Source: an uncultured Ruminococcus sp.
GTDB lineage: Bacteria; Bacillota; Clostridia; Oscillospirales; Ruminococcaceae
Assembly (NCBI GenBank): GCA_900752785.1
Contig: CAADWP010000166.1
Coordinates: 1-11,946 of the forward strand
Length of the DNA: 11,946 nucleotides
Reading direction: 5' to 3'
A program made the position numbers and the translations under genes. Below are positions 9,070 through 11,817 of the stretch, one piece after another (within the stretch, counting starts at the first letter, position 1; every line of letters starts with the position of its first letter). The notes under the pieces were generated by a model that was not told where the DNA came from, did not search any database, and worked only from the letters and a program-made list of their open reading frames with translations.

Positions 9070-9783
9070 ATGATAAAGCTTGATATTGCAAAAGAACTTA
9101 ATTCAAACGCATACCCCGGCAGAGGTATAGTTATCGGTAAATCAGACTGCGGAAAATTTGCCGTTACCGGTTATTTCATTATGGGCAGAAGCGAAAACAG
9201 CCGCAACCGCGTATTTGTTGAGGACGGCACGGGAATCCGCACACAGGCTTTTGAACCGTCTAAGTTAACCGACCCTCATCTCATCATCTACGCTCCGGTA
9301 AGAGTTTTGGGCAACAAGCTGATCGTCACAAACGGCGACCAGACCGATACTATCTACGACCTTATGGATAAGCAGTTCACATTTGAACAGTCGCTCCGTA
9401 CACGCGAATTTGAGGACGACGCTCCCAACTATACCCCCAGAATTTCAGGTATTCTCAGATTTGAAGAAAACGGCTTCAACTACGCTATGTCAATTCTTAA
9501 AAGCTCCAACGGCAACCCAGATTCCTGTCAAAGGTTCACATTTTCATACAATAATCCAGTAAACGGGGAAGGTCACTTCATTCATACATATATGGGCGAC
9601 GGAAATCCGCTCCCAAGTTTTGAGGGCGAGCCTAAACTTGTCGGAATTTCGGGAAATATCGACGAATTTACCGATATGCTCTGGAATAATCTCAACGCGG
9701 ATAATAAGGTTTCGCTTTTCGTTCGTTTTGTGAATCTTGAGGACGGTACTGTCGAGACTCGCATTGTAAACAAGAATAAGTGA
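9070..9783 (+). CDS. Archaeal-type (PurO-like) IMP cyclohydrolase
   Basis: Predicted to close the ring of FAICAR to give IMP, the last step of the pathway. The 237-residue protein is not related to the PurH cyclohydrolase domain; it matches the PurO / IMP_cyclohyd family first described in methanogens. Shared features are PGRGIVIGKS (16-25), a Ser/Arg/Asn-rich GRSENSRNRVF (39-49), APVRVLGNKLIVTNGDQTD (75-93) with the NGxxTD motif, and PNYTPRISGIL (119-129). It is some 35 residues longer than archaeal PurO, with an extra C-terminal part (SFEGEPKLVGI onward). The start at 9070 follows TGGAG at 9056-9060. Its partner AICAR transformylase lies downstream, past a lipoprotein gene and a repeat array; together they replace bifunctional PurH. 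Assigned by motif recall, not by a search. Confidence 0.87.
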   Translation: MIKLDIAKELNSNAYPGRGIVIGKSDCGKFAVTGYFIMGRSENSRNRVFVEDGTGIRTQAFEPSKLTDPHLIIYAPVRVLGNKLIVTNGDQTDTIYDLMDKQFTFEQSLRTREFEDDAPNYTPRISGILRFEENGFNYAMSILKSSNGNPDSCQRFTFSYNNPVNGEGHFIHTYMGDGNPLPSFEGEPKLVGISGNIDEFTDMLWNNLNADNKVSLFVRFVNLEDGTVETRIVNKNK

Positions 9784-9785
9784 AT

Positions 9786-10292
9786 ATGAAAAAAATAACA
9801 GCATTGTCGGTCGGTCTGATAATGGCAGTATCTTTTGTTTCATGCGGTGACGGCGGCAAAAAAAGCAGTAAAAGCGGTTCAGATAAAGCAGCCGAATACT
9901 TTATGGATTTTTCAGGAGAAATATTTTATACAAGTATTTTCCCGGATGAACGCATTGAAGAATTAAAAGACAGCGGCGAATGGGAAGATTTAATAGGCAA
10001 GTATAATGACGATATGGAAGATTCCCCCTATAAATACAAGGCCATGGATGTAAAAAAGGGAGAAGAATTAGTCAATCTTGAATATGCAGAAAGTTACTTT
10101 AGCGATGAGATGGACGTTGATGTTGAAGTCACCAAGGGATACGAATATATAGCAAAGGTTCAGTGTACTAACCGTGATGACGGGAAAAAGGACACTTATA
10201 CAAGGAAGTACTGCGTAGTAGAAGTGAACGATGACTGGAAAGTCATCCCTATCAGTGCGGAAGAACTTGAAAAAACATATGCTAAAAAATAA
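9786..10292 (+). CDS. Small predicted lipoprotein
   Basis: A 168-residue protein with a lipoprotein signal: MKKIT, hydrophobic core (ALSVGLIMAVS) and lipobox FVSC with the lipidated Cys20, followed by a Gly/Ser/Lys linker (GDGGKKSSKSGSDK). The rest is soluble, acidic and rich in Asp, Glu, Lys and Tyr. Predicted helices (about 33-75) precede strands such as EYIAKVQCTN and YCVVEVNDDWKVIPI, a layout like NTF2-type lipoprotein domains, though I do not recognise the family. Start choice: ATG 9786, two bases after the previous stop, begins the signal peptide properly; GTG 9780 would add two residues. There is no clear ribosome site, so translation is likely coupled to the upstream gene. It has no evident link to purine synthesis. 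Confidence 0.75.
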   Translation: MKKITALSVGLIMAVSFVSCGDGGKKSSKSGSDKAAEYFMDFSGEIFYTSIFPDERIEELKDSGEWEDLIGKYNDDMEDSPYKYKAMDVKKGEELVNLEYAESYFSDEMDVDVEVTKGYEYIAKVQCTNRDDGKKDTYTRKYCVVEVNDDWKVIPISAEELEKTYAKK

Positions 10293-10309
10293 TCAAGGAG
10301 GACATAACT

Positions 10310-10396
10310 ATGTCAAATGAAATGGCGGAGAGCCTCCGCAGGCAAATGAACTGCATTTCGTTTGATGCTGTGTCTCCGCAACAAAATCATAAATAA
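10310..10396 (+). CDS. Mini-ORF 1 in repeat copy 1 (28 residues)
   Basis: ATG 10310 follows AAGGAGG at 10295-10301. The product starts MSNEMAESLRRQMNCISF and ends PQQNHK. The first five residues equal those of the AICAR transformylase downstream. Strong initiation signals suggest it is translated, but a peptide this short cannot be called real from sequence alone. No signal peptide or membrane segment is present. It may be a leader peptide or simply a by-product of the repeat. Confidence 0.35.
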   Translation: MSNEMAESLRRQMNCISFDAVSPQQNHK

Positions 10397-10596
10397 TAAT
10401 TTAAGGAGGACATAACTATGTCAAACGAAATGGCGGAGAGCCTCCGCAGGCAAATGAACTGCATTTCGTTTGATGCTGTGTCTCCGCAGCAAAATCATAA
10501 ACAATAATTTAAGGGGGACATCTATTATGTCAAACGAAATGGCGGAGAGCCTCCGCAGGCAAATGAACTGCATTTCGTTTGATGCTGTGTCTCCGC
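10325..10596 (+). promoter_or_regulatory. Nested inverted repeats in each unit (candidate RNA switch)
   Basis: In each copy GCGGAG-AGC-CTCCGC (10325-10339, 10433-10447, 10542-10556) forms a 6-bp hairpin with a 3-base loop. The same 5' arm, GCGGAGA, can instead pair with a distal TCTCCGC (10373-10379, 10481-10487, 10590-10596). Further, AACTGCATTTCGTTTGA (10349-10365, 10457-10473, 10566-10582) is complementary over 12 bases to its own unit's TCAAACGAAATG and over all 17 bases to 10639-10655 in the AICAR transformylase gene. Alternative, mutually exclusive folds are therefore available next to the start codon. A regulatory role is inference. Confidence 0.55.
10418..10507 (+). CDS. Mini-ORF 2 in repeat copy 2 (29 residues)
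   Basis: Same peptide as mini-ORF 1 plus a C-terminal Gln, because the first stop TAA has become CAA. Its two other differences from copy 1 (codon 3 AAC, codon 24 CAG) are silent. The ribosome site AAGGAGGA lies at 10403-10410. Silent-only change inside the frame fits selection on the peptide, but two sites are too few to show it. Confidence 0.35.
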   Translation: MSNEMAESLRRQMNCISFDAVSPQQNHKQ

Positions 10597-10616
10597 AACA
10601 AAATCATAAACAATAA
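10527..10616 (+). CDS. Mini-ORF 3 in repeat copy 3 (29 residues)
   Basis: Peptide identical to mini-ORF 2. Its ribosome site is the weaker AAGGGGGA (10511-10518). The stop at 10614-10616 lies 19 bases before the ATG of the AICAR transformylase, close enough for ribosomes finishing here to affect initiation there. The antisense arm (10566-10582) is codons 14-19 of this frame. Confidence 0.35.
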   Translation: MSNEMAESLRRQMNCISFDAVSPQQNHKQ

Positions 10617-10619
10617 TTT

Positions 10620-10627
10620 AAGGAGGA
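10620..10627 (+). promoter_or_regulatory. Ribosome binding site of the AICAR transformylase gene
   Basis: AAGGAGGA is eight bases before ATG 10636 and decides this start over the in-frame ATG at 10579, which lies inside repeat copy 3 and has no site. The same site with its flanks is duplicated ahead of each mini-ORF. Confidence 0.85.
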
Positions 10628-10635
10628 CATCTATT

Positions 10636-11817
10636 ATGTCAAACGAAATGCAGTTAAAATACGGATGCAACCCCAACCAGAAGCCTTCAAGAGTGTATAT
10701 GGCTGACGGCAGCGAGCTTCCTATCGAGGTTCTCTGCGGAAAGCCCGGATATATCAATCTTCTCGACGCTCTCAACGGCTGGCAGCTCGTAAAGGAGCTT
10801 AAAGCCGCTACGGGCGTATGCGCCGCAACATCCTTCAAGCACGTTTCGCCTGCCGGAGCAGCTATCGGCAGACCTCTTTCCGACGATCTTAAAAAAATCT
10901 ACTGGGTTGACGATCTCGGTGAGCTTTCTCCCCTTGCAAGCGCTTATGCAAGAGCAAGAGGCGCGGACAGAATGTCGTCCTACGGCGATTTTATTGCTCT
11001 TTCCGACAAGGTTGACGTATGCACGGCTAAGATGATACAGCGCGAAGTTTCGGACGGCGTTATCGCTCCAGATTATGATGACGAAGCTCTTGAAATTCTT
11101 AAATCAAAGAGAAAGGGCACTTACTGCATCCTTAAAATGGACGAAAGCTATAAGCCTGCTCCTATCGAAACAAAGCAGGTTTACGGAGTTTCTTTCGAGC
11201 AGGGCAGAAACGAGCTTGATATCAATAAAGAGCTTCTATCCAACATTGTTACTGACAATAAGGAGATACCTGCCGACAAGCTCGACGATCTTATGATCTC
11301 GCTTATTACGCTGAAATATACCCAGTCCAACTCCGTTTGCTACGTCAAGGACGGTCAGGCAATCGGTATCGGCGCAGGTCAGCAGTCAAGGATCCACTGT
11401 ACTCGTCTTGCGGGTCAGAAAGCCGATAACTGGTGGCTCAGACAGTCTCCAAAGGTTATGGAGCTCCAGTTTGTTGACGATATCCGCCGCGCCGACCGTG
11501 ATAATGCTATCGACGTTTATATCGGAGACGAGTATGAGGATGTTCTGCGCGAGGGCGAATGGCAGAGAATTTTCAAGGTCAAGCCCGATGTGTTTACAAG
11601 AGAGGAAAAGCAGGCTTGGCTTGCACAGAATACAGGCGTTTGCCTTGGTTCGGACGCATTCTTCCCGTTCGGCGACAACATCGAGCGCGCTAAAAAGTCG
11701 GGCGTTGAGTATATTGCCGAGCCGGGCGGCTCTATCCGCGACGATAACGTTATCGAGACTTGCAATAAGTACAATATCGCTATGGCGTTTACGGGGATCA
11801 GACTTTTCCACCACTGA
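10636..11817 (+). CDS. Stand-alone AICAR transformylase (PurH C-domain type)
   Basis: Predicted to formylate AICAR with 10-formyltetrahydrofolate, giving FAICAR for the PurO-like cyclohydrolase upstream. The 393 residues cover only the transformylase half of PurH; the N-terminal cyclohydrolase domain of about 200 residues is absent. Motifs: LKYGCNPNQKPSR (7-19; usually LRYGENPHQ), SFKHVSPAGAA (66-76) with the catalytic Lys68-His69 pair (usually KHTNPCG), LKYTQSNSVCYVKDGQAIGIG (226-246; read in two parts, LKYTQSNSVCY and KDGQAIGIG), GAGQQSRIHC, DAFFPFGDNI, EPGGSIRDDNVI and the terminal FTGIRLFHH. The changed consensus residues suggest a distinct branch of the family. ATG 10636 starts the reading frame right after the repeat array, and its codons 2-7 are the target of the antisense arms. 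Confidence 0.92.
   Translation: MSNEMQLKYGCNPNQKPSRVYMADGSELPIEVLCGKPGYINLLDALNGWQLVKELKAATGVCAATSFKHVSPAGAAIGRPLSDDLKKIYWVDDLGELSPLASAYARARGADRMSSYGDFIALSDKVDVCTAKMIQREVSDGVIAPDYDDEALEILKSKRKGTYCILKMDESYKPAPIETKQVYGVSFEQGRNELDINKELLSNIVTDNKEIPADKLDDLMISLITLKYTQSNSVCYVKDGQAIGIGAGQQSRIHCTRLAGQKADNWWLRQSPKVMELQFVDDIRRADRDNAIDVYIGDEYEDVLREGEWQRIFKVKPDVFTREEKQAWLAQNTGVCLGSDAFFPFGDNIERAKKSGVEYIAEPGGSIRDDNVIETCNKYNIAMAFTGIRLFHH

What the first reader, a model, noticed from the sequence alone, without database searches (positions are those of the whole stretch)
10290..10650. Triplicated unit that copies a gene's ribosome site and first five codons into three extra mini-ORFs
Directly seen: three 108-109 bp units in tandem, each with AAGGAGG/AAGGGGG, ATGTCAAAYGAAATG and a 28-29 residue frame, ending in the genuine AICAR transformylase start. 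The real gene thus sits behind three decoy starts identical to its own. Copy differences in the frames are silent or extend the end by one Gln. I know of no described element of this form in front of a purine gene. Candidates: a leader-peptide regulatory array, a decoy for ribosomes or an RNA-binding factor, or a young expanding repeat.
Basis: partly seen in the sequence, partly recalled or inferred. Interest (0 to 1): 0.85.

Follow-up and report, generated by a model that had tools for sequence, protein, structure and literature searches.

The report
Hairpin-led copies of a gene start
In front of a purine gene of a Ruminococcus-like gut bacterium, three tandem copies of the gene's own start have been built around a small hairpin found scattered in related genomes, leaving an antisense arm that could hide the real start unless the extra short reading frames are translated.

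Summary
The triplication is real: period 108/109, 3.4 copies, 10283-10650.

The same make stands at the same gene in 2 of 125 genomes of L027's genus; the three carriers form no clade. Peptide tails are not conserved (28-29, 19 and 31 residues; frame differs). The anti-start is (17, 18, 12 nt).

The hairpin is a dispersed palindrome, exact in 11 of 125 genomes, with a compensated stem. In 28 of 84 copies tested the left flank recurs directly to the right. In one genome that flank is a promoter.

Best reading: a young REP-like, hairpin-led tandem duplication. Likely effect, in cis: anti-starts bury the real start, and translating the mini-ORFs reopens it (translational coupling). Predicted opening costs support this in the window and L027, not in G089. 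A peptide attenuator, known RNA family or purpose-built decoy is not supported.

The parts
9070..9783 (+). IMP cyclohydrolase gene, upstream in the purine operon
   Evidence: PF07826, E 5.7e-70
9780..10292 (+). small lipoprotein-like ORF (my reading of its N-terminus) between the two purine genes; its stop ends 2 nt before the first ribosome site of the array
   Evidence: ORF; no Pfam match
10283..10650 (+). whole tandem array, period 108/109, ending in the real start
   Evidence: TRF, the repeat finder
10310..10396 (+). mini-ORF 1, 28 codons plus stop, ribosome site 10295-10301
   Evidence: sequence; translation
10418..10507 (+). mini-ORF 2, 29 codons plus stop, ribosome site 10403-10409
   Evidence: sequence; translation
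10527..10616 (+). mini-ORF 3, 29 codons plus stop, ribosome site 10511-10517 (AAGGGGG)
   Evidence: sequence; translation
10325..10339 (+). dispersed hairpin GCGGAGAGCCTCCGC, copy 1
10433..10447 (+). dispersed hairpin, copy 2
10542..10556 (+). dispersed hairpin, copy 3
10349..10365 (+). anti-start 1: reverse complement of 10639-10655
   Evidence: inverted repeat I1, 17 nt, 100%
10457..10473 (+). anti-start 2
   Evidence: inverted repeat I2
10566..10582 (+). anti-start 3, nearest to the real start
   Evidence: inverted repeat I3; longest complement 17, 0 of 2000 shuffles
10587..10594 (+). GTGTCTCC, partial anti-Shine-Dalgarno paired to GGAGGACAT in the predicted fold
   Evidence: fold of 10519-10665
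10636..11817 (+). AICAR transformylase gene (purH C-terminal function; called purH here for short), ribosome site 10620-10626
   Evidence: PF01808, E 3.4e-60

Best explanation
The array is a young, local tandem duplication led by a REP-like hairpin, of the same make as arrays elsewhere in related Ruminococcus genomes. The hairpin sits right after a copy of the gene's ribosome site plus five codons. It is followed by an inverted copy of the start (with a remnant anti-Shine-Dalgarno), and then the start region is repeated directly. In the window this happened to the start of the AICAR-transformylase gene and was amplified to three units; in one other genome (G088) the repeated flank is a promoter instead. 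[Shown: anatomy, dispersal of the hairpin, direct copies ending at the hairpin edge. Inferred: hairpin-led duplication as the cause.] Its likely effect is in cis and at translation. Each anti-start can pair with the start that follows it, most strongly with the real gene's start, so the gene would be poorly initiated on naked RNA. Each mini-ORF runs through its own anti-start and stops about 20 nt before the next start, so a ribosome translating the mini-ORFs opens the next start. The real gene thereby becomes the last link of a translational-coupling relay. [Predicted from folding; not shown.] The peptides themselves are probably by-products.
For: Anatomy. Anti-start longest complement 17 nt (window), 18 (L027), 12 (G089), each 0 of 2000 shuffles; 76 non-carrier leaders have at most 9. 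Opening cost of ribosome site to +12: purH 16.7 kcal/mol in the whole array, 6.7, 9.8 and 9.4 for the mini-ORF starts; all three anti-starts held open, purH 5.7. With the last unit only: window 16.4, falling to 5.7 when its anti-start is held open; L027 23.7, falling to 6.7; 76 non-carriers median 6.3, range 3.5-11.8 (which re-ran the 77 with misplaced starts mended). Fold of last unit plus start -41.2 kcal/mol, z -4.05; leader 10284-10700 z -6.37. Dispersed hairpin: exact GCGGAGAGCCTCCGCMGGC in 11 of 125 genomes, 29 places, pattern read backwards 0; stem pair 5/11 is AT 52, GC 30, CG 6, TA 1, unpaired 1 of 90 copies. Left flank repeated directly in 28 of 84 copies (p<=0.005; 3 of the 28 are the window's own, the rest in 8 genomes); in 22 of 25 places that I picked for close reading the left copy ends exactly at the hairpin's first base. 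Promoter versions in front of G088 genes. Peptide not conserved, nucleotides conserved.
Against: G089, with the same make, has an ordinary opening cost (7.0; 6.9 with its anti-start held open). Mean unpaired probability of -18..+3 does not single out the real start (0.54 against 0.54, 0.48, 0.53 for the mini-ORF starts), so occlusion is mainly of codons 2-5, with only partial pairing of the Shine-Dalgarno. With only the last anti-start held open in the whole array, the cost falls no further than 11.1. That the frames stay open through the anti-start is not surprising (P 0.65-0.81 per unit under shuffling), so there is no sign of selection on the frames. Stop-to-start spacing is 19 nt before the real gene, where termination-reinitiation was measured as weak (passages of PMC10666635); coupling would have to act by unfolding. 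Carriers are rare and form no clade, which argues against a maintained function. The window's own genome is not held. No expression data exist here.
Confidence: 0.5

Rival explanations
1. Same origin, no function: a young tandem repeat seeded by a dispersed hairpin, tolerated because an intact ribosome site and start remain next to the gene. Pairing with the start is a relic of the inverted copy.
For: Rare and not clade-wide: 1 of the 78 best loci with enough upstream sequence (of 80), 2 of 125 genus genomes; three changes on the tree, starred branches force at least 2. G089 shows ordinary accessibility. Frames no more open than shuffles. In G070 the purH start was also copied 537 bp upstream into another gene, with no hairpin in the stretch read, so the site may be prone to duplication.
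Against: Pairing of the anti-start with the real start, reaching beyond what the mini-ORF start offers, is kept in all three carriers although purH DNA is only about 84% identical between them. The predicted cost to the real start in the window and L027 exceeds all 76 non-carriers, so a wholly neutral effect is not the default expectation.
Confidence: 0.37
2. Leader-peptide attenuator or sensor array: the 28-29-residue peptides or stalling on their codons regulate the purine gene.
For: Good ribosome sites and silent differences between the three window frames.
Against: All three carriers share only MSNEMAES: 28-29, 19 and 31 residues, the anti-start part read in another frame in G089. No + strand terminator-like site in 9700-10750. 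No Rfam match in the window at gathering score. No long run of one amino acid.
Confidence: 0.05
3. Decoy starts that titrate ribosomes or a regulatory RNA-binding factor that recognises the purH start.
For: Four near-identical ribosome sites and starts in about 350 nt.
Against: Copies in cis at three per message could titrate little (inference); no such factor is known to me; G089 has only one copy.
Confidence: 0.04
4. Assembly artefact of a short-read assembly.
For: The window's source is not told and L027 has an N gap inside its array.
Against: Copies differ at several positions and in spacing (108, 109), and a separate one-unit form exists in G089.
Confidence: 0.04

Closest known systems
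REP/REPIN sequences (RAYT-associated) and their tandem arrays
   Same: Short compensated palindrome in many copies; evenly spaced tandem arrays of REPs are described in Pseudomonas fluorescens (PMC3116915: abstract, and section 12).
   Different: No GTAG or CGTC tag at the hairpin; no Y1 transposase match (PF01797) in G088, the richest in the hairpin of the genomes counted. The repeat unit here carries a copied expression signal.
Translational coupling by RNA unfolding
   Same: A downstream start predicted to be buried in RNA structure that an upstream ORF's ribosomes would melt (review PMC12548453, passages).
   Different: The upstream ORFs are copies of the gene's own start, serially repeated, not a functional upstream gene. 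Coupling is not shown here.
VNTR / minisatellite-like intergenic tandem repeats (recalled)
   Same: Homogeneous head-to-tail units; one to three units seen among genomes.
   Different: The unit contains a dispersed hairpin and both a direct and an inverted copy of the target.
Ribosome-mediated attenuation leaders (e.g. trp, erm; recalled)
   Same: Short ORF with its own ribosome site in front of a gene, overlapping an RNA structure.
   Different: No conserved peptide, no + strand terminator-like site, no regulatory codon run.

Membership tests
REP/REPIN | short palindrome dispersed in many copies with compensated stem | tested here: met
   copies were found by pattern and partly picked by me, so the stem variants are not a random sample
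REP/REPIN | GTAG or CGTC tag at one end of the palindrome (most REPs, PMC3733652: abstract in the listing, passages) | tested here: not met
   left flanks vary freely and the right side reads NGGC in the copies listed
REP/REPIN | associated Y1/RAYT transposase in the genome | tested here: not met
   PF01797 in 3 of 12 genomes (G064, G002, G003); none in G088, G084, G122, G067, G090, G052, G046, G089, G007; G091, G034, G058 not tested; the window's own genome is not held
REP/REPIN | inverted doublets as the unit of spread | not tested
   doublets not counted
Tandem repeat (VNTR) | head-to-tail near-identical units | tested here: met
Tandem repeat (VNTR) | copy number varies between strains | tested here: inconclusive
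   1 unit in G089, at least 2 in L027 (N gap), 3 in the window, but these are different lineages, about 84% identical in purH DNA
Translational coupling by unfolding | predicted structure over the downstream start, relieved when the upstream ORF region is held open | tested here: inconclusive
   met in the window (16.4 to 5.7 kcal/mol) and L027 (23.7 to 6.7); not met in G089 (7.0 to 6.9)
Translational coupling by unfolding | downstream translation falls when upstream translation is blocked | not testable with these tools
   needs reporter fusions
Leader-peptide attenuator | conserved leader peptide or regulatory codons | tested here: not met
Known regulatory RNA family | match to an Rfam model | tested here: not met
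   0 matches at gathering score in the whole window

The most novel reading that the evidence does not exclude
In Ruminococcus a family of small hairpins without an evident Y1 transposase sits exactly at the end of an expression signal (promoter -10 or ribosome site plus start) and leaves a fresh copy of that signal downstream, so that the gene survives but gains a hairpin, an antisense arm and spare signals. At the purine gene this has produced a serial translational relay in which copies of the gene's own start control access to the real one.
Probability: 0.22. Interest if true: 0.75.

Novelty: new variant of a known kind. Interest (0 to 1): 0.5.

Why it matters
If the relay works as predicted, it shows how a repeat insertion at a start codon can survive by making its own rescue ORF, and can make an operon gene leader-dependent in a single step. 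The wider pattern (hairpin edge equals end of a copied promoter or start) gives a testable lead on how palindromic repeats spread in gut Clostridia. I found no description of this hairpin or of such start copies in six searches of the held library (open-access papers only, listings read).

Tried and rejected
Known RNA family: Rfam gave nothing at gathering score. Phage or plasmid origin: a phage-collection search of the leader found two 'Bacteriophage sp.' records matching only the real gene's start, a 29-residue tblastn found none, and an exact viral-contig pattern scan found none (that pattern would miss a G089-like unit); plasmids and E. coli genomes were not searched. Whole unit as a mobile element: rejected for the genomes scanned; matches beyond unit position 36 were purH arrays or hairpin only (at most 7 candidates scored in most genomes). 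I read 12 of that call's matched stretches in full; two or three further ones were ribosome sites of other genes. Hairpin right after a ribosome site and start at other genes: the pattern fits 2 of 125 genomes, G007 at purH and one place in G053 that I judged unrelated from its matched letters; G089 does not fit it because of one stem mismatch. In 396 family genomes GARATG plus hairpin (up to 1 mismatch) matched in 7 genomes at 8 places; of the eight loci only the two of G007 hold AICARFT within 1.5 kb; G089 was not in that sample. RAYT partner: rejected. Selection on the frames: no signal. Antisense transcription: each copy has a TTGACA promoter-like site on the minus strand, but TTGACA is simply the complement of TGTCAA in ATGTCAA; not pursued. 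Age of the array: the tree does not decide between one origin with losses, transfer, and repeated origin. In the test the L027 copies (identical, counted once) dropped out because of N, and G089's hairpin does not fit the pattern used. In one search and nine of the 77 non-carrier starts were off by a few bases because the tblastn match did not begin at a start codon; re-ran them (eight moved, L041 dropped, n 76) with the same median, range and maximum complement.
Full report
WHAT IS THERE. The window is a purine operon: AIR carboxylase (PF00731), a HAD hydrolase, SAICAR synthetase (PF01259), a glutamine amidotransferase (PF13537), AIR synthase (PF00586/PF02769), a formyl transferase (PF00551), IMP cyclohydrolase (PF07826) and a stand-alone AICARFT (PF01808; purH for short), with other ORFs between. 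Between a lipoprotein-like ORF that ends at 10292 and the AICARFT start at 10636 lies one tandem array, 10283-10650, period 109, 3.4 copies. Each unit has, in order: a ribosome site; ATGTCAAAYGAAATG (codons 1-5 of the gene); the hairpin GCGGAGAGCCTCCGC; 9 nt; AACTGCATTTCGTTTGA, the exact reverse complement of bases 10639-10655 of the gene; GTGTCTCC, which pairs with GGAGGACAT in the predicted fold; and an A+T-rich stretch leading to the next ribosome site. The inverted copy includes the gene's codon 6 and two bases of codon 7 (CAGTT), which the mini-ORFs lack, so it mirrors the real gene rather than the mini-ORF.

WHERE ELSE. The best 80 relatives of the gene in genome contigs are titled Ruminococcus and kin. 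Of the 78 with enough upstream sequence (L032 and L075 left out), only L027 (Ruminococcus sp. SIG538) has the units: two complete ones with an N gap between, so at least two. In 125 genomes of its genus, the unit matched beyond the copied start at purH in 2: G007 (which is L027) and G089 (one unit). 96 of the 125 matched the query in some part, mostly positions 1-36 (ribosome site and start); 29 had no match at E<=0.001. The window's sister rows L003 and L001 lack the unit. On a tree of 82 purH rows (L075 left out as partial; the G070 row is 824 nt) the three carriers form no clade: three changes, starred branches force at least two. The tree does not decide between one old origin with losses, transfer, and repeated origin.

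WHAT IS CONSERVED. The mini-ORFs differ after MSNEMAES: window MSNEMAESLRRQMNCISFDAVSPQQNHK(Q), 28-29 residues; L027 MSNEMAESPRCRYNCISFD, 19; G089 MSNEMAESLRRQFLHFVRQVSRNSKYNTKKH, 31, with the anti-start region read in another frame. The anti-start is kept: longest exact complement to the gene's start 17, 18 and 12 nt, each 0 of 2000 shuffles, against a maximum of 9 in 76 non-carrier leaders. A frame open through the anti-start is expected by chance (P 0.65-0.81 per unit), so the frames give no evidence of selection.

THE HAIRPIN IS A DISPERSED REPEAT. GCGGAGAGCCTCCGCMGGC occurs exactly in 11 of 125 genus genomes at 29 places (13 in G088), with 0 for the pattern read backwards. With up to two mismatches, 13 chosen genomes hold 171 places against 1 control match. 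In 90 fetched copies the fifth stem pair is AT 52, GC 30, CG 6, TA 1, unpaired 1 (copies were found by pattern and partly picked by me, so this is not a random sample). The left edge is sharp and the left flank varies; the right side reads NGGC. No paper in the held library prints any of the four hairpin strings that I searched for.

SIGNAL, HAIRPIN, SIGNAL. For 84 distinct fetched copies (3 of them the window's; not all of the 171 places) I compared the 60 nt left of the hairpin with 120 nt to its right. 28 of 84 have a direct repeat and 8 of 84 an inverted one at p<=0.005 (200 shuffles each). 13 of the 28 are from G088, mostly one promoter family, and are not independent; 12 lie in seven other genomes and 3 in the window. 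The other 56 of 84 show no such direct repeat. In 25 places that I picked for close reading, including window and carrier copies, the left direct copy ends exactly at the first base of the hairpin in 22. In G088 the left copy is a promoter cut after TATAA and the right copy an intact TATAAT, at the loci that I read in front of genes resembling pantothenate kinase, a response regulator and prolyl-tRNA synthetase (names recalled from the translations, not from a search). In G067 two such units stand in tandem, period 93. The purH array is the same make with a ribosome site and start in place of the promoter. In G088 within-locus similarity of the two promoter copies is only modestly above between-locus similarity (score 51.0 against 45.7, 12 loci), so there the unit may also spread as a whole.

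PREDICTED EFFECT. The cost of opening ribosome site to +12 is 16.7 kcal/mol for the real start in the array and 6.7, 9.8 and 9.4 for the three mini-ORF starts; holding the last anti-start open lowers it to 11.1, and holding all three open to 5.7. With the last unit alone the cost is 16.4 in the window (5.7 with its anti-start held open), 23.7 in L027 (6.7) and 7.0 in G089 (6.9); 76 non-carriers range 3.5-11.8, median 6.3. G089 is thus ordinary, and mean unpaired probability of -18..+3 is no lower for the real start than for the mini-ORF starts: both count against a strong or general effect. The mini-ORF stops end 19-21 nt before the next ATG. Published tests found reinitiation weak at about 20 nt (PMC10666635, passages), while unfolding by an upstream ribosome can act over such spacing (PMC12548453, passages).

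HOW IT MOST LIKELY WORKS. A hairpin-led event at the end of codon 5 left a direct copy, the hairpin, an inverted copy and a new direct copy of the start; unequal exchange then made more units. The direct-inverted-direct order recalls double template switching (my inference; one search listed papers on palindromes and template switching of which I saw only the listing). The anti-starts bury the next start and the mini-ORFs reopen it. I put the origin at about 0.8 and the functional relay at somewhat over 0.5 given that origin. A neutral repeat is the main rival.

MEMBERSHIP. It is predicted to work like a coupled leader and looks like a REP array, but two REP hallmarks were tested and not met (tag; Y1 transposase), so I do not file it as a REP. 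It is a tandem repeat by structure.

Noticed in passing
L124, L152-L157, L160-L162, L201, L202 (genome G088): At a dozen loci of one Ruminococcus genome a promoter copy cut at TATAA is followed by the hairpin, about 50 nt, then a promoter with intact TATAA: a possible promoter-copying repeat family.
   Followed up: partly
L127 (G070:C22), reverse strand, copy 537 bp upstream of purH: The purH ribosome site and first six codons are copied onto the front of a small zinc-ribbon-like membrane gene (my reading), apparently by tandem duplication, without the hairpin.
   Followed up: partly
L008 4658-4700 (R. flavefaciens FD-1): A small gene upstream of purH bears the usual purH ribosome site and ATGTCAA, while purH itself has a different ribosome site.
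   Followed up: no
window 9780-10292 and the same place in L001-L080: The sequence just upstream of AICARFT differs from genome to genome, as if the place between IMP cyclohydrolase and AICARFT were a hotspot for small cargo genes.
   Followed up: no
L034 4946-4964 (SIG537): A likely relic of a start copy, TCAAACGAAATGCATTAAA, ends 36 bp before the purH ATG, without its own ribosome site or hairpin.
   Followed up: no
L081 (MT837619) and L082 (MT836108): Unannotated 'Bacteriophage sp.' records match the start of the AICARFT gene; probably bacterial DNA in phage-labelled scaffolds.
   Followed up: no
window 10316-10289, 10424-10396, 10533-10504, 10642-10613, minus strand: Each of the four start copies holds a TTGACA promoter-like site on the minus strand (6 of 9 hits in 9700-10750; 2.8 expected in all), and each hairpin scores as a minus-strand terminator-like site (3 found, 0.8 expected).
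   Followed up: no
L218 (G088:C11:988470-989160): The hairpin with its right side (27 bp) is itself repeated three times head to tail.
   Followed up: no
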